Assembly (NCBI GenBank): GCA_023910675.1
Contig: JAAVWC010000009.1
Location: 62,001-126,000, forward strand
Direction of reading: 5' to 3'
Source: Gemmatimonas sp.
Lineage (GTDB): Bacteria > Gemmatimonadota > Gemmatimonadetes > Gemmatimonadales > Gemmatimonadaceae
Length of the DNA stretch: 64,000 bases
Shown here piece after piece: positions 17,806-48,444 of the stretch. The translations under genes and the position numbers were made by a program. Position 1 is the stretch's first letter. Every line of letters starts with the position of its first letter. The notes under the pieces are model-generated. The model saw only the letters and a list, made by a program, of their open reading frames with translations, was not told the origin of the DNA and did no database searches.

Positions 17806-19693
17806 ATGAAGCAGTTCTTCACCGCCCTGGCGGCGAATCTCGTCACGATCGCGGTGTGTGTCGTTGCCGCGGTCCTGCTCATCATTGGTGTGGCGGCGTC
17901 GGCCGGCTCGCGCCCCACCACCGTGGTGCGGCAGGGCTCGGTCATGATTGTCGATCTCGAGCAGGCGTTGTCGGATCAGCCGGCGCGCGCCGAGGCCCGT
18001 TCCGTGTTCGACGACGCGCTGTCGCCGGGCAGCGATGCCCTGCCTCTGCGTTCGGCGCTGTTGGCCATCCGCGCGGCAGCGGACGACGACCGCATCAGCG
18101 GCATTTTGCTCCGCGGCTCCGTCACGGGCGACGGCGTGCGCTCTGGCTATGCGGCGCTCCGCGAGCTGCGGCAGGCGCTCGTCGCCTTTGCCGCCAGCAA
18201 GAAGCCGGTGCACGCGTACCTCGTGAACCCGGATGTGTCCACGTACTACGTGGCCTCGGCGGCCACGCAGATCACGCTCGACCCGTTCGGCTCGCTATTG
18301 TTGCCTGGCATGGCATCGGAGCAGGTGTTTCTGAGCGGGCTCTTCGAGAAATACGGTATTGGCGTGCAGGTGAGCCGCGTGGGGCGCTTCAAGGCGGCGG
18401 TCGAACCGTTCACATCGCACCAACATGAGCCCGGAGAACCGCCTGCAGGTCGCGTCATACTTGGGTGACCTGTGGAGCGAAGTGAAGCGCGGCATTGCCG
18501 AGAGCCGCAAAGTGGACACGCTGACCCTGCAGGGCATGGTGGATGCCCAGGGGATCATGCTGCCCGCCGACGCGCAACGCGCCAAGCTCGTGGACCGCGT
18601 GGCCTACTTCGACGTGGTACTTGCTGACTTGCAGACGATGACGGGCAAGGCGGGCGGCACGGTCGCGCGGAGCGCCAAGGACAGCACGCGCGACGCGGAG
18701 CTCGCGGCGATCATCGAACAGCCCTCGATGCCACAGATCACGCTCGATGCGTATGCGCCCATTGCCGTGGCGAAAGACCGCATCATTGGCGGCAGTCAGG
18801 CGATTGCCGTGGTGTATGCCGAGGGGGATATCGTGGACGGCGAAGGGGGCGACGGGCAGATCGGAGGCGCCGCGCTGTCGCGCGAGCTGCGCAAGCTTCG
18901 CACGAACAACACGATCAAGGCGGTCGTGTTGCGGGTCAACAGCCCAGGCGGCAGCGCGATTGCCTCAGAGCAGATTCAGCGCGAGCTCACGCTCATTGCG
19001 AAGAACAAGCCGCTGGTGGTGTCCATGGGTTCACTGGCGGCGAGCGGCGGCTATTGGATCAGCACCGCCGGCTCCCGCATTTTTGCTGAACCCAACACGA
19101 TTACCGGCTCCATCGGGGTGTTCTCGCTAGTGCCGAACATCAAGGGACTCGCCGACAAGCAGGGGATCACGTTCGATACGGTGAAGACCGGGCGTTACGC
19201 CGATCTTTTCTCGCTGGCACGGCCGCGTACCGAGGCGGAGCTCGCGGTGTTGCAGCGCGGCACCGACGCGGTGTACGCGGCGTTTTTGCAGCGCGTCGCG
19301 AGCGCCCGCAAGCTGACGGTCGATTCGGTGGGGATGATTGCCGAAGGACGCGTATGGTCGGGCGCGCAGGCGCTGCGCATCGGTCTCGTCGACTCCATAG
19401 GTGGCCTCGACATGGCACTCAAGAGTGCGGCGTTGCTCGCGAAGCTCACTGGCGACTACGAGGTGCGGGAGTATCCGCGTGTGAAGTCGGCCACGGAGCG
19501 CATTACGGAGTTGCTGGAAGACAAGCCGGCGCCGGTGGCAGCGCGGGCGAATGCCGCCCTTCGCGAGATGGGCGCGCGCGGTGTGGCCGCCGATCTGGCG
19601 CGCGACGTGACACGTGAGCTCACCATGCTGCTGTCGTACAACGACCCGCGTGGGGTGTATGCGCGGATGCCGTACATTTTGCGGGTTCGGTAA
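17806..19693 (+). pseudogene. sppA: Signal peptide peptidase SppA (67K type), one frameshift
   Basis: A membrane anchor (about residues 8-35) is followed by two tandem S49 domains. The catalytic lysine is expected in VSRVGRFKAAVEPF and the serine in MGSLAASGGYWIST. The frame shifts near 18412, just after AAVEPFTS, and resumes as NMSPENRLQVASYLGDLW; skipping one base gives a normal protein of about 628 residues. SppA degrades cleaved signal peptides in the membrane. The TAA stop lies inside the conserved end of an inverted-repeat element. Everything except the single shift looks intact, so it may be functional in the organism. Confidence 0.85.
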
Positions 19694-19938
19694 CGGCGGT
19701 TGAACAACGGGGGGCTGGTCCGGCGCTCAACTCGCCACGGCACTAGCCCTCAGGGAAAAGAACGTAAGGAAAAAGGGGGAAGCGCGGTTCGGTCCACCAC
19801 GAACAACGATCTCGTTGTTACCGGCGAACCGAACCGCGCTTCCCCCTTTTCCCTTACGTTCTTTCTCCTGAGGGCTAGTGCCGTCGGCCAGTGAACCGCC
19901 GGACCAGCAACCGCAGTTCAGCTACCGCAGTTCAGCTA
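19690..19938. repeat. Long imperfect inverted repeat, copy 1
   Basis: The core runs 19714-19908 with outer arms GCTGGTCCGG / GGACCAGC. Inside, the left arm AGCCCTCAGGGAAAAGAACG through GGGGGAAGCGCGGTTCGGT pairs with the right arm over about 75 bases. The asymmetric end GTAACGGCGGTTGA at 19690 supplies the sppA stop codon. The other end carries two direct copies of CCGCAGTTCAGCTA (19911-19924, 19925-19938). Two further copies lie near 43.2 and 46.2 kb in the opposite orientation. All three sit between convergent genes. Confidence 0.85.
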
Positions 19939-19943
19939 CCGCA

Positions 19944-20321
19944 TCAGCCCTCGAACACCGGCGTCGTCCACGCGCCGTACGTCACCTTGCGCGCGGCTTC
20001 GAGGCGACGGCCCTGCGCCTGCCAGTCGGCGAGATCGGCGTGCATACGCGCCAGATGAGCGCCGGCCTTGGCGATACAGGCGGCATTGCCACGTGTCTGC
20101 ACGTCACCGAGCGCCCACTCCGCGGCCTTTGCGCGCGCGCGGGCAATGACGAGCTGATCGACGCAACGCGCGGCGTGATAGCTGCTCCACGCAGCCATGG
20201 GACGATCGTCATCGATGCCGTACAGCGCCCACACACCATCGGTGGTCGGAATGGCATCGAGGAGAAATCCATCGAAATCTTCAGGGATTGCGTAGGTCGC
20301 GTCCGTGCTGGGCATGCTCAT
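19944..20321 (-). CDS. Hypothetical protein
   Basis: The product has 125 residues from ATG 20321 (MSMPSTDATYAIPEDFDGFL); an in-frame ATG at 20402 would add 27 residues. The composition is mixed alpha/beta with Trp/Tyr-rich parts (WALYGIDDDRPMAAWSSYHA) and a long helix. No signal peptide, membrane segment or known motif is seen. It converges on sppA across the inverted-repeat element. Unknown function. Confidence 0.6.
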   Translation of the reverse strand: MSMPSTDATYAIPEDFDGFLLDAIPTTDGVWALYGIDDDRPMAAWSSYHAARCVDQLVIARARAKAAEWALGDVQTRGNAACIAKAGAHLARMHADLADWQAQGRRLEAARKVTYGAWTTPVFEG

Positions 20322-20456
20322 AGGGAGGCACCGAAAGAGTGGGCGGAACGCATCGAACCGAGGACTGTCCGGCTGTTCGTCATGGGCGGCTCTTCCGGAC
20401 ACTCACTCAAGCTGCGCGCCGTGCTTGATGGTTCCCTCGCTTTCTACATTTCGCGC

Positions 20457-21503
20457 ATGCCTATCCGACATTTCCCGTCGCCCGCCGTGTTGGCGCAGGC
20501 GACGCTGCTGGCCCTGCTCTCTCCCGTCGCCCCGCTGGTCGCGCAAGCCACCGTCGCGACGCCCAGCAAACCGTCTGTATCCAAGCCAACGGCCAAGCCC
20601 TCCGCGAAGGACAGCGGCGCCAAATCGGCGTACCCCACCGGCGGCACATCGGCCGCCGCCCGCGCACTCGCCGGCAAGCCGGTGCCGGTGTGGCCTGTGC
20701 CCGGACCGGCGCCGCTGGCCGGCAGCGTCCTGCCGGCCAAGCGCATTATTGCGTATTACGGCAATCCGTTCTCCAAGCGCATGGGCGTCTTGGGCGAGTA
20801 TCCGAAGCCCGACATGCTTTCGCGTCTCGATCGTGAGGTCGCGGCTTGGAAGCGCGCCGATCCCGACACGCCCGTGCAACCGGCGCTGCACCTCATAACC
20901 ACGGTGGCGCAGGGCGACGCGGGCAAAGACGGCAAGTATCGCATGCGCCACAGCGACAAGCTCACCGAGAAGGTGTACGGGTGGGCCAAGGAGCGGAACG
21001 CGCTGCTCTTTCTCGATGTGCAAGTGGGGTTGAGCACTATTCAGGAAGAGCTGCCGCGCCTGGAAGCGTGGCTGTCCAAGCCCGATGTGCACGTCGGCAT
21101 GGACCCCGAGTTCTCGATGAAGGACGGCACCAAGCCCGGTCGCAAGATCGGCAGCTACGACGCGGCCGATGTGAACTGGGTCATCGATCAACTCGCGCGC
21201 ATTGTGACGGCCAACAACCTGCCGCCAAAGATTCTGGTGGTGCACCGTTTCACGAAGCCGATGCTCACCAACGCGACGAAGATCAAGCGCGACCCGCAGG
21301 TACAGGTGGTCATTCACATGGACGGGTGGGGCCCGCCAAGTCTCAAGCGCGATTCGTACGCGGCATACGTATACGCCGAGCCGGTACAGTTCACCGGCTT
21401 CAAGCTGTTCTACAAGAACGACACCAAGTACGGTGGCCCCATCATGACGCCGGCGCAGCTGCTCGCGCTCACCCCCAAGCCGCTCTACATCCAGTATCAG
21501 TAA
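20457..21503 (+). CDS. Exported hypothetical protein, barrel-like
   Basis: This 348-residue protein has a signal peptide (residues 1-30, ending SPVAPLVAQA), a low-complexity Pro/Ser/Lys/Ala linker (about 31-75) and a conserved globular domain beginning RIIAYYGNPFSKRMGVLGEY. Later segments include ALLFLDVQVGLSTIQEELPR, HVGMDPEFSMKDG and VVIHMDGWGPPSLKRDSYAA. The strand-end acidic residues and overall look suggest a TIM-barrel, glycosidase-like fold, but no catalytic pair can be assigned. It is probably periplasmic or surface-located. It lies divergent from the hypothetical gene at 19944 and converges on the TonB receptor gene. Confidence 0.7.
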   Translation: MPIRHFPSPAVLAQATLLALLSPVAPLVAQATVATPSKPSVSKPTAKPSAKDSGAKSAYPTGGTSAAARALAGKPVPVWPVPGPAPLAGSVLPAKRIIAYYGNPFSKRMGVLGEYPKPDMLSRLDREVAAWKRADPDTPVQPALHLITTVAQGDAGKDGKYRMRHSDKLTEKVYGWAKERNALLFLDVQVGLSTIQEELPRLEAWLSKPDVHVGMDPEFSMKDGTKPGRKIGSYDAADVNWVIDQLARIVTANNLPPKILVVHRFTKPMLTNATKIKRDPQVQVVIHMDGWGPPSLKRDSYAAYVYAEPVQFTGFKLFYKNDTKYGGPIMTPAQLLALTPKPLYIQYQ

Positions 21504-35789: not shown

Positions 35790-36764
35790 TCAGACAGTCT
35801 CCCCGATGAGCCCCGCGCGCACCTCGAGATAATCCACGAGCTGTACGACGGGGTCGAAGCCCACGACGTTGACCGCATCGGCGACGAAGTTCGAGAGCGC
35901 ATTGACATCGTAGAAATAGTGCTGCCCATCGCGGTCGTCGACGAGATACTCGATCCCTCCCACATCGATGCCGGCGGCCTGCGAAATGCGCTCAACCTGT
36001 GCAATGATCTCCGCGGGCGGATCGGCGCGCTCGACGCGCATGCCGCTCTTGGGCGCGTCAATCGCGCAGGCGCCGCGCACGAGCGCCGCGCCACTCGTGG
36101 TCTGACACGCGTCGGCCGGGCACAGGTCGAACGAGCCCACGGTCGGATACACGTTGATGGCGTAGAGATACTTGCCATTGAGCGTTTCGACGCGCGTGAT
36201 GTGTCCATTGCGAAGCGGCGCCGCCTCCTGCACGAGAGCTGTGCCGTCGACGCCGAGATCCACCGTTTCCGCCGCGATTGCCGACGACAAGACCTCCGCA
36301 TTCTCGTACTTCACGATGCCGGCACCACTGCCTCCGACATTCGCCTTCACCAGGATCGGGTAACGCAGCCCGTCGGCCGCGGCGAGCGCCTGCGAGGCAT
36401 GATTGATGACGCGGGAGCGCGGAAAGGGCAGCCCAAGCTCGCGCAGCAAATCGAGCTGGGTAGCCTTGGACAGCTCGTTGGCGTACGCCTCGACGCCATT
36501 CACCACCGGCACACCAAGCCGCTCGAGATGCCGCAGCCAGTGCAGCGTGTAGAACGTGGTCTGCCCATGGCCACGCAAGTACGCCGAGGGGCTGGCCCGG
36601 TTGAACACCAGCGACCACGGCAGCTCGCGCGCCGAAGGGTCGAACGCGTGGGCGGCCGCGTCGAGCCGCTCGTACGGAATACCCCGCTTGTCGAGCTCAG
36701 CAAACAGCGGGCGGAACCAGTCCGGGTGCTCGTGATAAATGGCGAGCGGACGAATCGTGGACAT
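35790..36764 (-). CDS. ATP-grasp ligase, RimK/D-Ala ligase-like
   Basis: This 324-residue protein starts at ATG 36764, which has a good ribosome site (CAGGAG). The ATP-grasp core is visible: RYPILVKANVGGSGAGIVKY (glycine-rich ATP loop with Lys), LVQEAAPLRNGHITRVETLN, and the metal-binding end GGIEYLVDDRDGQHYFYDVN with Asn. The N-terminal domain (AIYHEHPDWFRPLFAELDKR, LVFNRASPSAYLRGHGQTTF) resembles RimK-like amino-acid ligases. It would join a carboxylate and an amine using ATP; the substrate is unknown. The exported amidase downstream is a possible opposing or processing enzyme. Confidence 0.83.
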   Translation of the reverse strand: MSTIRPLAIYHEHPDWFRPLFAELDKRGIPYERLDAAAHAFDPSARELPWSLVFNRASPSAYLRGHGQTTFYTLHWLRHLERLGVPVVNGVEAYANELSKATQLDLLRELGLPFPRSRVINHASQALAAADGLRYPILVKANVGGSGAGIVKYENAEVLSSAIAAETVDLGVDGTALVQEAAPLRNGHITRVETLNGKYLYAINVYPTVGSFDLCPADACQTTSGAALVRGACAIDAPKSGMRVERADPPAEIIAQVERISQAAGIDVGGIEYLVDDRDGQHYFYDVNALSNFVADAVNVVGFDPVVQLVDYLEVRAGLIGETV

Positions 36765-36808: not shown

Positions 36809-36834
36809 GCCCGGGCAATGTGAGCCGCCCGGGC
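36809..36834 (-). terminator. Hairpin between chemoreceptor and ATP-grasp genes
   Basis: The perfect 8-bp stem GCCCGGGC / GCCCGGGC with a ten-base loop is followed by TTT on the minus strand and by GTCGCGTTTT on the plus strand. It lies 126 bases after the chemoreceptor stop and 45 bases before the ATP-grasp start. Confidence 0.6.
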
Positions 36835-36959
36835 GTCGCGTTTTAGCTCGTTGTTTTACGTGGCGGCAAGAGGCGGCAAATGACCACGAAGCAGTTGGCC
36901 CCGCACGCTAGCCCTACGAACAAAGCTGGTCAAGTATTGAGCGTCTTGCTTTGAACAGA

Positions 36960-42196: not shown

Positions 42197-43108
42197 ATGG
42201 ACCAGACCACGCGACACGATATGGACGACATGATCCAGACCCTCGAAGCCACCGGCGATTACCGCGTGCTTCGGCGATTCGAGGCGCGCGATCGGTACGC
42301 CCCCGCGGCGCCGGGCATCGACGTGCGGCGTGGGCTCATCCTCGATGTCGAGACGACCGGGCTCGATACCACCAACGATCACATCATCGAGCTCGGCTTG
42401 GTGGCCTTCGAGTTCGACGGCGGCGGCATCGTCTACGGTGTGGACCGCAAGCGGGAATGGTTCAACGACCCCGGCATTCCCATTCCCGACGTCGCGTCGG
42501 AGATCACGGGCATTACCGACGACATGGTTCGTGGCCAGCACATCGACGACGACGCGGTGCTCGCGGAGATTGCCCGCGCCCACCTGATCATCGCCCACAA
42601 CGCGAGCTTCGACCGTCGCATGCTCGAACGGCGGTATCCTGCGCTCACCCAGAAGCATTGGGGCTGTTCGCTGAACGATGTCCCGTGGGCGCGCTTCGGG
42701 TGTCGCGGCGCCAAGCTCGACTATCTGCTTTTTCAGCTGTGTGGCGCATTTCACACGGGCCATCGGGCAGGCGACGATTGTCTTGCCACGTTGCACGTGC
42801 TGGCGACACCGCGTGACGGTGACGTGTCGCCACTCACCCTCCTGCTGGAGAACGCCCGCAAGACGACCGCACGATTGTCGGCGATCGGTACACCGATCGA
42901 AACCAAAGAGGTGCTGAAGGCGCGTGGCTACCGCTGGTTCAACGGCAACAGCACGCGCCCCAAGACGTGGTTTCGCGATGTGCCGGAAAGTGAGCTCGAG
43001 GCCGAACAGGCGTGGCTGCGCGAACACGCCTATGGCGGGTTGGCCAACCCGCCGTGGCGCATTGACCGGTTTACGGCGAAGGAGCGGTATTCGGAGCGGG
43101 TGCTCTAA
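42197..43108 (+). CDS. DnaQ-like 3'-5' exonuclease
   Basis: This 303-residue protein has the DEDDh exonuclease motifs: ExoI DVETTGLDTTND, ExoII HNASFDRRML, and ExoIII GHRAGDDCLATL with His and Asp. The C-terminal 90 residues (ETKEVLKARGYRWFNGNSTR, PKTWFRDVPESELEAEQAWL) form an added domain seen in stand-alone DnaQ-like proteins. It degrades single-stranded DNA or RNA 3' ends; the role could be repair or RNA turnover. Its start is 12 bases from the divergent thioredoxin fusion gene, and its end abuts inverted-repeat copy 2. Confidence 0.88.
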   Translation: MDQTTRHDMDDMIQTLEATGDYRVLRRFEARDRYAPAAPGIDVRRGLILDVETTGLDTTNDHIIELGLVAFEFDGGGIVYGVDRKREWFNDPGIPIPDVASEITGITDDMVRGQHIDDDAVLAEIARAHLIIAHNASFDRRMLERRYPALTQKHWGCSLNDVPWARFGCRGAKLDYLLFQLCGAFHTGHRAGDDCLATLHVLATPRDGDVSPLTLLLENARKTTARLSAIGTPIETKEVLKARGYRWFNGNSTRPKTWFRDVPESELEAEQAWLREHAYGGLANPPWRIDRFTAKERYSERVL

Positions 43109-43349
43109 CTGCGGAGTACAGCAGGTGGGGTTTGGTCCGGCGGTTTACTGGTTACGGCACGAGCCCTCAGGGGAAAGAACGTACGAGCACCGGAGGAAAC
43201 ACGGGGTGGTCCACCGGGAACCGCAGTTGCGATTGTGGTGGACGGCACCGCACTCTCCCCTATGTCCTTGCGTTCTTTCCCCTGAGGGCTCGTGCCGTAA
43301 CCAGTAAACCGCCGGACCAGCCGCCGTTATTCACCGCCGTACACAAGCG
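43109..43349. repeat. Long imperfect inverted repeat, copy 2
   Basis: The core is 43132-43321, arms TTGGTCCGGCGGTTTACTGG / CCAGTAAACCGCCGGACCAG, with inner arms ACGGCACGAGCCCTCAGGGG / CCCCTGAGGGCTCGTGCCGT matching perfectly. The middle (GAGCACCGGAGGAAACACGG against its partner) pairs less well than in the other copies. The element fills the gap between the exonuclease stop and the convergent MFS gene stop. The end equivalent to the sppA side of copy 1 (GTACGGCGGTGAATAACGGC on the minus strand) lies on the right, so it is inverted relative to copy 1. Confidence 0.85.
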
Positions 43350-43351
43350 TG

Positions 43352-44758
43352 CTACGCCGTTCGTCTGGCTCGCAAGCGTACACTGAACACCATCATCGTC
43401 ACCATCACACCGACCGCGGTGAGATACGCGGTTTGCAATCCGACCAGTCCGCCTCCGGCCGCGTCGGCGAGCGCGCTGAGCACGGCCACCACCATGAGGT
43501 TGCCGATGGCAATGCCGATGTTCACGAGCGCCTGCGCCGCACTGCGCTGCTGCGCGCTCACTTCATCGAGCACGACGGTGCGCAGCGTGCCGCCCACCAC
43601 AATTCCCACGCCGGCCCCGATGAACAGCGTGGCCACCATGAACGCCCAGTAGTGGTGCGCGAGTAGTCCCACGAGCAGAGACCCGATGCCGAGGGTGCCG
43701 AAGCCCCAGAGCATAACCGCTCGCGGCCCCAGCGTGTTTTGCAGTCGCCCGAACAGTGCCGATGCCACCGACGAACAGAGTACCAGCGGCAGCAGCATGA
43801 GCCCGGCCTTGCTGGCCGGTGTCTGAAAGGCGGCCACGGCCACCGACGAAATGAAGATCACACTGCCCATCCCGAAGCCGGCGCCCGTACACAGCACCCA
43901 CGTGGTGCGCAGCTGCTGCGTGCCGAAAAGCGTGAGCGGTACGATGGGCAAGGCCGCGCGGCGCTCGACCCACATGAGCGAAGGGACGGCGAGGACGGCG
44001 GTGACGAGCAGCGCCGGCCAAACCGTAAGGCCCGTAAGCGTATCGACCGCGCGATTGATCCCCAGCGTGAGACTGGCCAGCATGATGGCAAGGACCGTGA
44101 TCCCGGCGTAGTCGAACGGCGGCGACGCATCGGGCCTGCTGACGCGTGGCAGTGACCGATACCCCATGGCGAAGACAATCGCCGCAAAGGGCAGATTGAT
44201 AAGAAAGATCCAGCGCCAGCTGGCGACGACGAGAATCGCCGACGCGAGAATGGGCCCGAACAGAAATGCCATGCCGAAGGTGGCGCCGATGAGGCCGAGA
44301 ATCTTCCCGCGTTGCTCCGGCGGGAAGGTATCGCCAACCACGGAGCTCGCGGTGGGCGTAATGCCACCGGCACTCAACCCCTGAATGGCACGCCCCAGCA
44401 GCAGCACGTCGAAGGTGCTCGACTGCGCGATGATCAGCGAGCCGATGGCAAAACCGGCAATATCCATGAGGTAGATGGTGCGCCGGCCAAAGCGATCGCT
44501 GAGCGCCGCCATCAGCGCCGTACTCGTCATCGAGCAGAGACTGAACACGATGGTGACGAGTCCGACTTGCCGGTTGTCCACGCCGAACGCGGTCCGCAGC
44601 GCCGGGATGGCGGGGGCAATGACGGCCGCATCGAGCGCCGCCATAAAGACCCCGGCAAAGAGCACGGTGAGCAGCCGCTGGCGTGCGGCGGCGTCTTCGG
44701 GAGAGAGCGTGGGTGGAGGCGACGGCGACGACGCCGTTGGGACAGCAATGACGGTCAT
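43352..44758 (-). CDS. MFS transporter, drug/proton antiporter type
   Basis: The product has 468 residues from ATG 44758 (MTVIAVPTASS). About 12-14 hydrophobic segments are visible, with major-facilitator motif A ALSDRFGRRTIYLMD between segments 2 and 3 and motif C-like GATFGMAFLFGPILASAIL in segment 5 (a hallmark of exporters). MAALDAAVIAPAIPAL at segment 1 resembles the DHA2/EmrB group. It probably exports drugs or metabolites. It is monocistronic, convergent with the exonuclease across repeat copy 2, and divergent from the flavoprotein gene, sharing about 160 bases of upstream DNA. Confidence 0.87.
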   Translation of the reverse strand: MTVIAVPTASSPSPPPTLSPEDAAARQRLLTVLFAGVFMAALDAAVIAPAIPALRTAFGVDNRQVGLVTIVFSLCSMTSTALMAALSDRFGRRTIYLMDIAGFAIGSLIIAQSSTFDVLLLGRAIQGLSAGGITPTASSVVGDTFPPEQRGKILGLIGATFGMAFLFGPILASAILVVASWRWIFLINLPFAAIVFAMGYRSLPRVSRPDASPPFDYAGITVLAIMLASLTLGINRAVDTLTGLTVWPALLVTAVLAVPSLMWVERRAALPIVPLTLFGTQQLRTTWVLCTGAGFGMGSVIFISSVAVAAFQTPASKAGLMLLPLVLCSSVASALFGRLQNTLGPRAVMLWGFGTLGIGSLLVGLLAHHYWAFMVATLFIGAGVGIVVGGTLRTVVLDEVSAQQRSAAQALVNIGIAIGNLMVVAVLSALADAAGGGLVGLQTAYLTAVGVMVTMMVFSVRLRARRTA

Positions 44759-44917
44759 GCCGGCAATGTAGCGCGCCGCGCATGACTCGGCCGCCCATTC
44801 CCCGCCGTCTGCCGCCGGGCGATACTTCACCGGTGCGGCGTGGTGCCGTGTGTCGTACCGCGTTGACCGGCCCCGCAACAGGCGGCCGTGCGGCAGGCCT
44901 TTGGGGCAGGTGGAGTG

Positions 44918-46138
44918 ATGCAACGAGTTGTCGTGATCGGTGCGGGCGCGGCGGGAACGATGGCGGCGATCTTCGCCGCGCGCGGTGGAGCAGACACGAT
45001 CCTGATCGAGCGCACCAAGGACGGTGGTCGCAAGATTCTCATCAGCGGCGGCGGACGGTGCAACGTACTTCCGTCGCGCCTCGATGAATCGCGGTACGTG
45101 ACCGACTCGTCGCCAAACACGCTGCGCAAGATTCTCCGTGGGTGGCCGCTGGCCGAACAGATCGCGTTCTTCGAGCAGGAGGTCGGCGTTCCGCTCGAGG
45201 AGGAAGTCGAGAGCGCGAAGCTGTTCCCTGCCTCACACAAGGCGCGCGATGTGCGCGATGGCCTGCTCGACCTGGCGCGTCGGTCCGGTGTGCGCCTGCT
45301 GTTCGATACGAAGGTCACCGGCTTGCAGCGCGATGGCGCGCAGTGGCTGGTCGCGCTGGACAACGATGTGCCGCTGCGCGCGGACTCGGTGATCGTGGCC
45401 ACGGGTGGCCTGTCGGTCCCCAACACCGGCAGCGACGGCACGGGGCTCAACATGCTGGCGGCGATGGGGCACACCATCCACCCCACCTATGCGGCGCTCA
45501 CGCCGGTGTGCGCGGACAACAGCGCGTACGGCGAGCTCTCGGGGATCTCGCTCAAGGTATCGCTGACGGCCACCTCCGAGGCGCGGCGGGCGACGGCCAG
45601 CGGCGGCTTTCTGTTCACACACCGCGGCTACAGTGGGCCGTCGGTGCTCAACGTGTCGCACGTGGCGGTGCGGGCGCGCCACGACGCGGCGAGCGCCGCC
45701 AGCATCTCGGTACAGTGGACCGCTCACGACGAGGCGGCGTGGACGGCGCTGCTGCAGCCGCACGGCTCACGTCAAGTGTCGAGTGTGGTGCGGCACGAGT
45801 TGCCCGATCGGTTGGCCGATGTGCTCATGGCGCAGGCCAACGTGGAGCCGACGCGCAAACTGGCCGAGCTGACGCGCGACGAACGGCGCCGCCTGATCGA
45901 CACGCTGGTGCGCGGGCCGCTCCCATGGAACGGCGACGAAGGCTACAAGAAAGCCGAAGTCATGGGCGGCGGTGTACGCCTGTCGGACATCGATCCGCGC
46001 ACGATGGAAAGCCGCCTGCACAAAGGCCTGTACCTGTGTGGCGAAGTGCTCGACGCGTTCGGCCCGATTGGCGGCTACAACTTTTTTTGGGCGTGGGTAA
46101 CCGGGCGGGCGGCGGGACAGGCGGTCGCGGCGGGTTGA
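44918..46138 (+). CDS. HI0933/BaiN-family FAD-dependent oxidoreductase
   Basis: The product has 406 residues from ATG 44918. It has a two-dinucleotide-binding flavoprotein fold: N-terminal GxGxxG FAD motif VVVIGAGAAGTMAAIFAARG, ILISGGGRCNVLPSRLDESR (hallmark GGGRCN), ATGGLSVPNTGSDGTG, and the C-terminal MGGGVRLSDIDPRTMESRLH ... GYNFFWAWVTGRAAG. Members were once called aminoacetone oxidase family; some reduce bile-acid intermediates or menaquinone-like compounds, so the substrate here is unknown. The stop codon is followed at once by inverted-repeat copy 3. Confidence 0.88.
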   Translation: MQRVVVIGAGAAGTMAAIFAARGGADTILIERTKDGGRKILISGGGRCNVLPSRLDESRYVTDSSPNTLRKILRGWPLAEQIAFFEQEVGVPLEEEVESAKLFPASHKARDVRDGLLDLARRSGVRLLFDTKVTGLQRDGAQWLVALDNDVPLRADSVIVATGGLSVPNTGSDGTGLNMLAAMGHTIHPTYAALTPVCADNSAYGELSGISLKVSLTATSEARRATASGGFLFTHRGYSGPSVLNVSHVAVRARHDAASAASISVQWTAHDEAAWTALLQPHGSRQVSSVVRHELPDRLADVLMAQANVEPTRKLAELTRDERRRLIDTLVRGPLPWNGDEGYKKAEVMGGGVRLSDIDPRTMESRLHKGLYLCGEVLDAFGPIGGYNFFWAWVTGRAAGQAVAAG

Positions 46139-46360
46139 CCGCGGAGGTTTGGTCCGGTGACTTACTGGCTACGGCACTAGCCCTCAGGAGAAAGAACGCA
46201 AGAGCACAGGAGGAAGCGCGGTGCCGTCCACCCCGACCGCAACCGCGGTTCCCAGTGTACCAAACCGCGCCCTTCCCTGTGCTCTTGCGTTCTTTTTCCT
46301 GAGGGCTCGATCCGTAAGCGGTGAACCGCCGGACCAGCCCCCGTAGTCAACCGCCGTTAC
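46139..46360. repeat. Long imperfect inverted repeat, copy 3
   Basis: The core is 46149-46338. The left arm GCCCTCAGGAGAAAGAACGC then AAGAGCACAGG pairs with the right arm CCTGTGCTCTTGCGTTCTTT then TTCCTGAGGGC. The right end carries GTAACGGCGGTTGA (minus strand, 46347-46360), the same sequence as at copy 1, and here it supplies the TAA stop of the M16-like gene. Where copy 1 reads GTAAGGAAAAA this copy reads GCAAGAGCACA, and in each copy both arms changed together. Confidence 0.85.
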
Positions 46361-48444
46361 TTCGCCAACCGCAGTTCAATCGGCTGCCCCACCGGCGCAA
46401 TCCGTACCAGGCGCTTGCTCTGCTTGTCCACGTAGAACACGCTCGACGACTCGCCGCCCGTCTGTTCGATCTTCCAGGTGTCGAACGTCCCGGCGGGTAC
46501 CGTCACCGATTCGCTGCCGACCACGGTGAGCTTGATCGGCTCTACCGTGCCCTTGCCGGCCTCGAACACGTTCACCGTGAAGCTCGCCTTGTCGACCCAG
46601 CGGAACAGCGGCAGTGCCGCCGTAATCGCGTCGGCGGCAATGGTGCCCTTGGGCAGTTCCGTGTCGATGGTGACCGACTTGGGGCCCTGCTGCGTCATGG
46701 TCTGGGCGCTTCCCTTGGCACGCCCACCGGCGAACGATACGTCCGTCTTGAGCTGCTGCCCCTGCATCGACATGCCCTGCTGCAACGACGTCGGCGACAG
46801 CGCCGCATCGATCTGCAAGGTGCTCTGCTGCGCCATCATGCCGTTCATGATCGACGTGTTCTCCTTGAGCGTCCATCCAGCTGTCGCCTGCTCGACCGAG
46901 ATAACGGACTGCCCCGCAGCATTGCCCTGCACGAACACCACGAAGGAATCGCGCGAAGCCTTCAACTGCGACGCATCGAAGGCCACCATCATCGTCTTGG
47001 GGGTGAGATCGGACGGCTGCATCACGTCACCGTCGGCGTTCACGATCTTCACTGGCGCGACCTTGGCGAGCTTGTCGTACAACTTGGACCCGTCACCCAC
47101 GATCACGACCAGCGCCTGTTGCGGCCGGATGACCCGACGGGCCGCTGCCGTTGCCTGCGCGATCGTGACCGCGGCCATCCTGGTGCGATACGTCTGCAGA
47201 TAGTTGGCGGGCAGGCCATACAACTTGACGGTGGCCACGCGTTCGGCGAGCTCTTGCGGCGTTTCGATGGTGAGCGGGAACGAGCCCACCATGGCACCAC
47301 GCTTGAGCTCGAACTCTTCGCGCGGAATGGCTTCGACAGTGATGCGGCGCAACTGCGCGAGCATTTCCACCATCGCCGAATCGGTGACTTCGGTGCGCAC
47401 TTCGGCATTGGCTTCGAAACGCCCCATGCCACGGGGCCGCGTGATCCGTGCATACGCGCCGTAGGTCCAGCTCTTCTGCTCGCGCAGAATGGTGAAGAGG
47501 CGTGCGTCGGTCCCGCCGCCCAGAATGGAGGTCGCAATGGCGGCCGCAAAGCGCGCAGAGTCGGCCGGGCCAATGGCGAGATTGCCCACCAGCACATTGG
47601 ACTGCACGGAGCCTGGACGATGTACCAGCAGGATCTCGGTTTTGGCGCGCGTCGGCGGTGCCGGGAACGCCACGGGTGCGCCCGTCCCGCCAACCCATCC
47701 GCTGAACGCCTTTTCCGCATCGCGCGTCAGCTGCGCGAGCGTGATGTCACCGGCCACCACCAGCAACGCCCCGCGCGGCCGGACTCGCGTGCGGTGGAAC
47801 TGCTGCAGGTCCGCACGTGAGATGGCGCGAATGGTGGCGGCGGTCGACGTGCCACCGTACGGGTGCGCCCCGTACAGCGCCGCGCGGAAATACTTGTTGG
47901 CCAGGTAACTGGGATCGGCCGCGCTGATCTGCAGCCCCGACAATGCCTGCGTGCGGGCAAGTTCGATTTCCTTGCTGTCGAGCGTCGGCCGTGCGATCAC
48001 GTCGCCAAGAATCTCGAAGGCCAGCGGCGCCGCATTCGACAGCACCGAACCGCTCACCGACAGGAAGTCGTCGTCGGAGCCAGCGGCAATCCCGCCACCT
48101 GCACTTTCGATCTCCTTCGCGATCTGTTCGGCGCTCCGCTTGCCCGCTCCCTTCGTGAGCAGCGACGCGAGCATCGTCGCCGTCCCGGTCTTGTTCGCGG
48201 GGTCGTACGCATCCCCGGCGGCGGCGACCAATCGGAAGGCCACCGTCGGATTGCGATGACTCTCCACCAACACGACGCGCACACCATTGCTGAGCGTCGC
48301 CTCCTGGAACGGCGGGAGTGATGCCGGCTTGATGGGCGCAGGGGCGGGCGGCTGCGATGGGTACGACTGTGCCGACGCCGTATACACGGGGACCAGGGCG
48401 GCGAGCGCGATCACCCGAGGGCGGAATAGATGGGAGCGGCTCAC
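46357..48444 (-). CDS. Non-catalytic M16-family subunit with extra C-terminal domain
   Basis: This 695-residue exported protein (signal peptide ALAALVPVYTASAQS) has two M16 (insulinase/processing-peptidase) halves, about 45-460. The zinc motif HxxEH is missing: the equivalent stretch reads AYDPANKTGTATMLASLLTK. The arginine/tyrosine-type site of the second half (TSILGGGTDARLFTILREQK) is kept, as expected for the partner chain of a heterodimer. A C-terminal region of about 200 residues (SVTVPAGTFDTWKIEQTGGE) resembles DUF3108-like beta domains. It starts with GTG overlapping the stop of the catalytic M16 gene by four bases, so the two are coupled. Confidence 0.85.
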   Translation of the reverse strand: MSRSHLFRPRVIALAALVPVYTASAQSYPSQPPAPAPIKPASLPPFQEATLSNGVRVVLVESHRNPTVAFRLVAAAGDAYDPANKTGTATMLASLLTKGAGKRSAEQIAKEIESAGGGIAAGSDDDFLSVSGSVLSNAAPLAFEILGDVIARPTLDSKEIELARTQALSGLQISAADPSYLANKYFRAALYGAHPYGGTSTAATIRAISRADLQQFHRTRVRPRGALLVVAGDITLAQLTRDAEKAFSGWVGGTGAPVAFPAPPTRAKTEILLVHRPGSVQSNVLVGNLAIGPADSARFAAAIATSILGGGTDARLFTILREQKSWTYGAYARITRPRGMGRFEANAEVRTEVTDSAMVEMLAQLRRITVEAIPREEFELKRGAMVGSFPLTIETPQELAERVATVKLYGLPANYLQTYRTRMAAVTIAQATAAARRVIRPQQALVVIVGDGSKLYDKLAKVAPVKIVNADGDVMQPSDLTPKTMMVAFDASQLKASRDSFVVFVQGNAAGQSVISVEQATAGWTLKENTSIMNGMMAQQSTLQIDAALSPTSLQQGMSMQGQQLKTDVSFAGGRAKGSAQTMTQQGPKSVTIDTELPKGTIAADAITAALPLFRWVDKASFTVNVFEAGKGTVEPIKLTVVGSESVTVPAGTFDTWKIEQTGGESSSVFYVDKQSKRLVRIAPVGQPIELRLAK

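What the first reader, a model, noticed from the sequence alone, without database searches (positions are those of the whole stretch)
19690..19938. Three-copy family of about 190-bp inverted repeats, each between convergent genes
Near-identical long inverted repeats occur at 19714-19908, 43132-43321 and 46149-46338, always filling a gap between two convergent genes. They share outer arms around GGTCCGGCGGTTTACTGG and inner arms around AGCCCTCAGGRAAAGAACG. Where the copies differ in the stem (GTAAGGAAAAA in copy 1, GCAAGAGCACA in copy 3), both arms have changed to match. Within-copy matching across copies is what a conserved hairpin would show. It could be a two-way terminator, an RNase III target or a non-coding mobile element. 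I cannot match it to a named family.
Basis: seen in the sequence. Interest (0 to 1): 0.78.

Follow-up and report, generated by a model that had tools for sequence, protein, structure and literature searches.

The report
Long palindromes at bacterial gene ends
A freshwater bacterium carries about fifty copies of a long mirror-image DNA sequence placed just behind the ends of genes, and some related species carry dissimilar palindromes at the same kind of place, which hints that the position is used for something even though the sequence changes.

Summary
The three inverted repeats are real and belong to a family of 48 full-length copies (core 185-206 nt) in this genome, found otherwise only in two sister Gemmatimonadaceae genomes. 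'Always between convergent genes' fails genome-wide: 16 convergent, 28 tandem, 3 divergent of 47. The better rule is a nearby stop codon: 40 of 47 have one within 60 nt. Arm matching within copies is real but weak, and arms have changed partners between copies. Between species, positions whose mirror is conserved differ at 2.8%, others at 21%, which points to present selection. G-U and A-C mismatches are equally common on the sense strand and no U-tract is seen, unlike intrinsic terminators, so the constraint looks DNA-level. It is not like the genus's attC sites and matches no Rfam family. Two relatives lacking the family hold dissimilar long hairpins in the gap of copy 1. Best reading: a new family of repetitive extragenic palindromes, MITE-like in origin, kept as two-sided gene-end boundaries. 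The mechanism is inferred.

The parts
19701..19921 (.). Copy 1: full palindromic element, core 19717-19905 plus about 16 nt at each end
43118..43334 (.). Copy 2: full palindromic element, core 43134-43318 plus about 16 nt at each end
46135..46351 (.). Copy 3: full palindromic element, core 46151-46335 plus about 16 nt at each end
18425..19693 (+). Peptidase S49 gene ending 23 nt before the core of copy 1
   Evidence: Pfam PF01343; found in 19 of 20 genus relatives searched
19944..20402 (-). Convergent gene, 152 aa, no Pfam match at E 0.001, conserved beside the S49 gene in five of the relatives fetched; its stop faces copy 1
42221..43108 (+). RNase T-type exonuclease gene ending 25 nt before the core of copy 2
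43352..44830 (-). Major-facilitator transporter gene, stop facing copy 2
44918..46138 (+). HI0933-like flavoprotein gene whose stop ends 12 nt before the core of copy 3, inside the outer end of the element
46357..48414 (-). Peptidase M16 / DUF3108 gene, stop facing copy 3

Best explanation
The element is a family of long repetitive extragenic palindromes. Two copies of one roughly 100-nt unit face each other to make a palindrome of about 220 bp, MITE- or BIME-like in kind. It spread before three sister species of one genus split. It now sits mostly at gene 3' ends, often abutting or supplying the stop codon, and is kept there by selection. SHOWN: repetition, placement near stop codons, strong constraint on boxes shared by both arms, arms nearly always paired, weak compensatory change, exchange of arms between copies. 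INFERRED: it works as a two-sided boundary between transcription units. A protein reads the mirrored boxes on double-stranded or extruded DNA and stops or insulates transcription or supercoiling from either side, with the very stable RNA hairpin adding 3'-end protection or termination.
For: 48 full copies plus two of 84 nt and one weak match. In own and sister copies together, distance from core to stop codons: median 23 nt, 128 of 144 within 60 nt; to start codons: median 120 nt, 22 of 84 within 60 nt. Tandem copies lie nearer the upstream gene's stop in 22 of 28 (own) and 35 of 40 (sisters). Divergent gaps are depleted: odds ratio 0.26, p = 0.02, or 0.12 against gaps over 100 bp. In 44 ortholog pairs, columns whose mirror is at least 93% conserved differ at 100 of 3534, other arm columns at 731 of 3475. 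Compensated pairs: 49 against 24.4 expected over 44 pairs; 21 against 13.1 over 31 pairs, one per own copy, 9 of 500 permutations as high. Arms form one pool (A-A 77.1%, B-B 76.6%, A-B 76.8%); polarity against transcription is 14 to 14 in own tandem copies. Dissimilar long hairpins fill the same convergent gap in G028 and G029, and relatives have hairpin families of their own near stop codons.
Against: No protein is identified and no expression data were available. About fifty copies can serve only a small part of the gene ends of a 4.5-Mb genome. 7 of 47 copies have no stop codon within 60 nt and 10 of 47 have a start within 60 nt, some perhaps through gene-calling errors. Gene conversion among copies could also keep boxes uniform. 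Target-site duplications and clean empty sites were not recovered, so mobility is inferred from repetition. In the gap of copy 1 only two of six relatives printed have a long hairpin; G015 has about 36 bp and no long hairpin there, and in the gap of copy 2 G015 has about 44 bp without one.
Confidence: 0.55

Rival explanations
1. Bidirectional RNA terminator or 3'-UTR stabiliser: the transcribed hairpin ends transcription or blocks exonucleases for the gene or genes that run into it, and selection acts on the RNA stem.
For: Position just behind stop codons and convergent enrichment; mean folding energy -135 kcal/mol for 47 copies against -74 for 200 random windows of 186 nt; some compensatory substitutions; dissimilar hairpins in the same gap of two relatives.
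Against: G-U and A-C mismatches equal on the sense strand of tandem copies over the first 75 arm positions: 85 against 104 (28 own copies) and 147 against 144 (40 sister copies). In Bacillus cereus intrinsic terminators G-U is the most frequent intermediate (PMC5381666, passages). Longest T run only 2-6 in 47 copies; no terminator-like site in the gaps of copies 2 and 3. Sequence boxes are conserved beyond what pairing needs. So long a stem may tolerate A-C freely, which weakens the first point.
Confidence: 0.25
2. Relic MITE without host function that inserted preferentially at gene ends and is now inert.
For: Repetitive, palindromic, clade-restricted; other, dissimilar families in relatives.
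Against: Columns whose mirror is conserved change 7 times more slowly than others between orthologs. Among own copies only one apparent single arm is seen (L061:4001-4091). At least 31 of 47 own copies are shared by position with a sister species.
Confidence: 0.12
3. Topoisomerase or nucleoid-protein site: the mirrored boxes bind gyrase or an architectural protein that relieves or bounds supercoiling at gene ends, as recalled (no call) for BIME-2 and gyrase in E. coli.
For: Symmetric, strand-neutral constraint on sequence boxes; placement where ending or converging transcription piles up supercoils.
Against: No binding data; stretches between boxes still show some pairing constraint.
Confidence: 0.18
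4. Recombination site bounding exchangeable gene cassettes, integron attC-like.
For: One gene plus one element present or absent with the switch at the element's edge (L061 against L102), an inverted segment with exchanged arms (L086 against L111), different genes between two elements (L054 against L105).
Against: An integron integrase is in all 8 genus genomes tested, five of which lack the family, and attC-like sites beside it, recognised by eye, look different. 31 of 47 own copies keep both flanks in a sister. Homologous recombination between repeats explains the events.
Confidence: 0.06

Closest known systems
ERIC / IRU and YPAL (RU-2) of enterobacteria
   Same: Intergenic repeats of 127 and 168 bp that form long stem loops; ERIC is co-transcribed with neighbouring genes (PMC2229807, passages).
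   Different: Restricted to three Gemmatimonadaceae genomes; no direct sequence comparison with ERIC or YPAL was run beyond Rfam. Target-site duplications are not shown here. Two arms of about 100 nt from one pool; boxes under measured constraint; placement tied to stop codons.
REP / BIME elements
   Same: Palindromic units near gene 3' ends: a significant proportion of E. coli REPs lie 1-20 nt from the end of an ORF (PMC12306157, passages).
   Different: REPs are 20-40 bp, many with GTAG or CGTC tags (PMC3733652, title and abstract start in the listing). Here the unit is about 100 nt in about 50 copies, and the single Y1 transposase-like gene is not near a copy in this genome.
Bidirectional intrinsic terminators
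   Same: Hairpin between convergent genes.
   Different: No U-tract and no G-U preference seen, far longer, a repetitive family of common descent.
Short repeats of 90 and 150 bp in Gemmatimonadota chromosomes
   Same: Same phylum, similar size (PMC11237797, passages).
   Different: That paper counts repeats by length; hairpin, palindrom- and terminator have 0 occurrences in its main text. Whether its repeats are palindromes was not tested.

Membership tests
MITE / ERIC-YPAL-type palindromic repeat | Short non-coding repeat with terminal inverted repeats, many copies, intergenic | tested here: met
MITE / ERIC-YPAL-type palindromic repeat | Target-site duplication and filled/empty sites | tested here: inconclusive
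   Gaps without the element in relatives are too diverged to read a junction; sister loci were fetched because they hold a copy, so empty sister sites could not show
MITE / ERIC-YPAL-type palindromic repeat | Autonomous partner transposon with the same ends | tested here: inconclusive
   No match longer than 206 nt to the family model; the genome was not scanned for transposase genes with these ends
REP / RAYT system | 20-40 bp tagged palindromes | tested here: not met
   Unit about 100 nt
REP / RAYT system | RAYT gene flanked by the repeats | tested here: not met
   One PF01797 gene in each of the three genomes, also in G015, no match in 4 others tested; no copy near it in this genome; the sisters' gene neighbourhoods were not checked for copies
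Intrinsic terminator | U-tract after the stem | tested here: not met
   gaps of copies 2 and 3; T runs of 47 copies
Intrinsic terminator | RNA-level pairing constraint (G-U preferred over A-C) | tested here: not met
   limited power with so long a stem
Intrinsic terminator | Transcripts end there | not testable with these tools
   needs Term-seq
Integron attC | Resembles the attC-like sites beside the genus's integron integrase | tested here: not met
   By eye those sites run from TAAC...TTGCTGC to GCAGCAGAACG...GCGTTA (attC features recalled); the element has no such ends
Any Rfam family | Match above gathering score | tested here: not met
   Only an unrelated SAM-alpha riboswitch in the window

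The most novel reading that the evidence does not exclude
In this genus the gene-end slot, not the sequence, is what evolution keeps. Lineages fill it with non-homologous families of 80-220 nt palindromes, which turn over like mobile elements but serve one shared job as two-sided boundaries that do not depend on a classical RNA terminator.
Probability: 0.35. Interest if true: 0.72.

Novelty: new member of a known kind. Interest (0 to 1): 0.5.

Why it matters
If the slot reading is right, this genus offers a natural experiment: dissimilar palindrome families occupy the same kind of gene end in sister species, so one can ask which property (pairing, length, sequence box, protein) is needed to end or insulate a transcription unit. 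It also shows that arm matching in a repetitive palindrome is not by itself evidence of an RNA hairpin: strand-aware mismatch counts are needed.

Tried and rejected
Rejected: (1) 'Always convergent'. (2) Integron attC: considered because elements follow genes as attC sites do and one cassette-like gain or loss exists; dropped after reading two integrase neighbourhoods. (3) REP/RAYT: one Y1 transposase-like gene per genome, no copy near it in this genome. (4) Templated arm correction: compensated pairs are mostly isolated (45 runs of one, 2 of two, 1 of three), which does not favour tract copying. (5) RNAalifold's covariation term was close to zero (0.2), while the full mirrored stem gave a score of 0.141 against 0.118 in shuffles; both are reported.

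Led nowhere: empty-site junctions and literature on Gemmatimonas palindromes (nothing on them in the 10-20 rows listed by each). One search was a first, poorer gene caller, replaced. The replacement still calls one gene wrongly (20382-21503 on +, where conserved minus-strand proteins lie), so orientation counts are approximate. 47 of the 48 full copies entered the counts; the one at C2:23430 was dropped because its profile match began at position 9. In one search two of eight G001 loci were dropped because they are cut by contig ends and the assumed coordinates did not hold; three of eight G028 loci there lie in one gap.

Full report
OBSERVATION. Their single strands fold far better than shuffles. 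Rfam has no match for them.

FAMILY. BLASTN against the own genome scored 40 of 61 candidates and listed 80 two-strand matches. A covariance model from 24 copies gave 48 full-length copies, two 84-nt copies and one weak match. Among 61 genomes searched, own included, only three have a match at E 0.001, all in one genus. The sister genomes G008 and G017 have 92 and 100 two-strand matches, that is roughly 46-50 places each; a count of 100 may be a cap. A pattern with 20 specified bases, run over one genome for each of 84,980 species, gave 65 stretches, all from two MAGs: a Gemmatimonadaceae bacterium (CANGXD01) and a pond bacterium (JAIXTI01). Copy coordinates agree with G008 and G017 where compared. 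The tool notes that records of the own genome may be left out of that scan.

ANATOMY. The core is about 186 nt, with a further 16 nt or so at each end (AGCCACCCGTTGTTCA read outward) that often reaches or supplies the neighbouring stop codon. Left and right arms are one pool: A-A 77.1%, B-B 76.6%, A-B between copies 76.8%, A-B within copies 80.3% (47 copies). The own partner's rank among 47 arms runs from 1 (9 copies) to 41, so many copies carry ill-matched arms. The unit is therefore a single sequence of about 100 nt used twice, face to face.

PLACE. A home-made gene caller gives, for 47 full copies, 16 convergent, 28 tandem and 3 divergent, against 40, 148 and 49 in 237 element-free gaps of the same stretches. 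Convergent enrichment is 2.5-fold in odds (p = 0.015) and divergent depletion 0.26 (p = 0.02; 0.12 against gaps over 100 bp). In tandem gaps the copy lies nearer the upstream stop in 22 of 28 (own) and 35 of 40 (sisters). 40 of 47 have a stop within 60 nt; 10 of 47 have a start within 60 nt. Polarity against transcription is 14 to 14 in own tandem copies.

SELECTION. 44 ortholog pairs covering 31 of 47 own copies were matched by both flanks. The element differs at 13.3%. Columns whose mirror column is at least 93% conserved differ at 100 of 3534, other arm columns at 731 of 3475, loop columns at 149 of 767. Conservation was taken from the mirror column to lessen circularity, but from the same sequences. 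Flanking alignments are mostly 88-96% identical, so the boxes evolve more slowly and the rest faster than the surroundings. Compensated Watson-Crick changes number 49 against 24.4 +/- 4.6 expected (44 pairs, 0 of 500 permutations; these pairs share own copies) and 21 against 13.1 +/- 3.5 (31 pairs, one per own copy, 9 of 500). On the 24-copy alignment the covariation score is 0.141 against 0.118 shuffled (0 of 500), a measure that relatedness can inflate; the two measures less prone to that are weaker: 30 pairs changed on both sides against 25.8 (20 of 500) and 74 further pair types against 69.4 (29 of 500). RNAalifold's covariation term is only 0.2.

STRAND TEST. If the transcribed hairpin were the target of selection, G-U pairs should outnumber A-C mismatches on the sense strand of tandem copies. 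They do not: 85 against 104 in 28 own copies, 147 against 144 in 40 sister copies; convergent copies, as control, give 50 against 68 and 68 against 74. In Bacillus cereus terminators G-U is the most frequent intermediate (PMC5381666, abstract and other passages). With such long stems the test has limited power, but it gives no support to RNA-level selection. T runs are short and no terminator-like site was found in the gaps of copies 2 and 3 (the gap of copy 1 was not scanned).

REARRANGEMENTS. Seven own loci with broken or unusual synteny were inspected, three of them base by base. In L061 against L102 a gene plus an element is present or absent, with the switch at the outer edge of the element. 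In L086 against L111 a segment of about 465 bp between two elements is inverted and the inner arms have changed partners. In L054 against L105 the genes between two elements differ: restriction-modification proteins against a methyltransferase and a low-molecular-weight phosphatase family protein. Ordinary recombination between repeats explains these and explains why arms reassort.

RELATIVES WITHOUT THE FAMILY. G028 is the closest relative found without it (87% and 81% protein identity at two loci). In the convergent gap of copy 1 six relatives were printed: G028 has a hairpin of about 98 nt with no evident similarity to the element, G029 another of about 80 nt, G012 and G005 shorter ones, G015 a gap of about 36 bp, and G020 nothing evident. 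In the gap of copy 2, G015 has about 44 bp without a long hairpin and G028 holds about 2.7 kb; for copy 3 the convergent neighbour was not found in the stretches fetched. A scan of 380 kb from nine genus genomes gave 15 inverted repeats above threshold, none inside a called gene: 8 between convergent genes, 5 in tandem gaps, 1 divergent, 1 at a stretch end. These stretches were chosen as orthologs of the window or as integrase regions, not for hairpins. The G004 hairpin has about 26 places in G004 and about 17 in G001, none in the other nine genomes searched, so those two share a family. Of 11 G004 copies with loci, 10 lie within 25 nt of a stop; of 6 usable G001 loci all lie within 33 nt. The G028 hairpin has about 12 places in G028, most of them partial; it also has one good copy in the window's genome at C30:38426 between convergent genes and weaker partial matches in G000, G008 and G017. 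So lineages do not each have a strictly private family.

INTERPRETATION. Shown: a repetitive palindrome family of common descent at gene 3' ends, constrained on mirrored sequence boxes, with weak pairing constraint and no RNA-strand signature. Inferred: two-sided boundary function, read at the DNA level by a protein, with the RNA hairpin as an accessory. That dissimilar palindromes hold the same gap in sister species is the most suggestive evidence for a function of the slot; it rests on one gap with three different families plus 3'-end families in other species, so it needs a census.

KNOWN KINDS. It works like ERIC, YPAL and REP/BIME elements and belongs with them as a kind; for the named families see the membership table. 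The phylum's short repeats of 90 and 150 bp have been counted by length in print (PMC11237797, passages); the words hairpin, palindrom- and terminator do not occur in that main text. The searches showed no paper on Gemmatimonas palindromes in the rows listed.

Noticed in passing
G000:C1:472276-473214 (L165) and seven other genus genomes: All 8 genus genomes tested carry an integron integrase over the family cut-off. In this genome attC-like cassettes lie nearby, some repeated almost identically in tandem, with other integrase- and transposase-like genes between.
   Followed up: partly
L054:7186-14236 against L105:5282-7189: The stretch between two palindromes holds restriction-modification genes in one species and a methyltransferase plus a phosphatase-family gene (arsenic-type by guess) in a sister.
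   Followed up: partly
G000:C1:358350-358682 (L166): A single Y1 (IS200/RAYT-like) transposase gene is in all three genomes with the palindrome and in G015; no match in four other relatives tested.
   Followed up: partly
window 36823-36897 (-): SAM-alpha riboswitch just above gathering score (36.1 against 36 bits), upstream of the called gene at 35790-36764.
   Followed up: no
window 19909-19918, 43219-43228, 46241-46250, 46367-46376: The motif AACYGCRGTT occurs in the window only at the three elements (4 matches, 0.28 expected in shuffles), in loops and flanks; flanks of some other copies show short tandem GTTCAACCGC units.
   Followed up: partly
L076:4001-4084, L095:3935-4038, L141:2199-2320: Copies of 84-122 nt in one species are full length in another. 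In L076 the middle is missing; in the others one arm is short. Deletion helped by the palindrome is a guess.
   Followed up: partly
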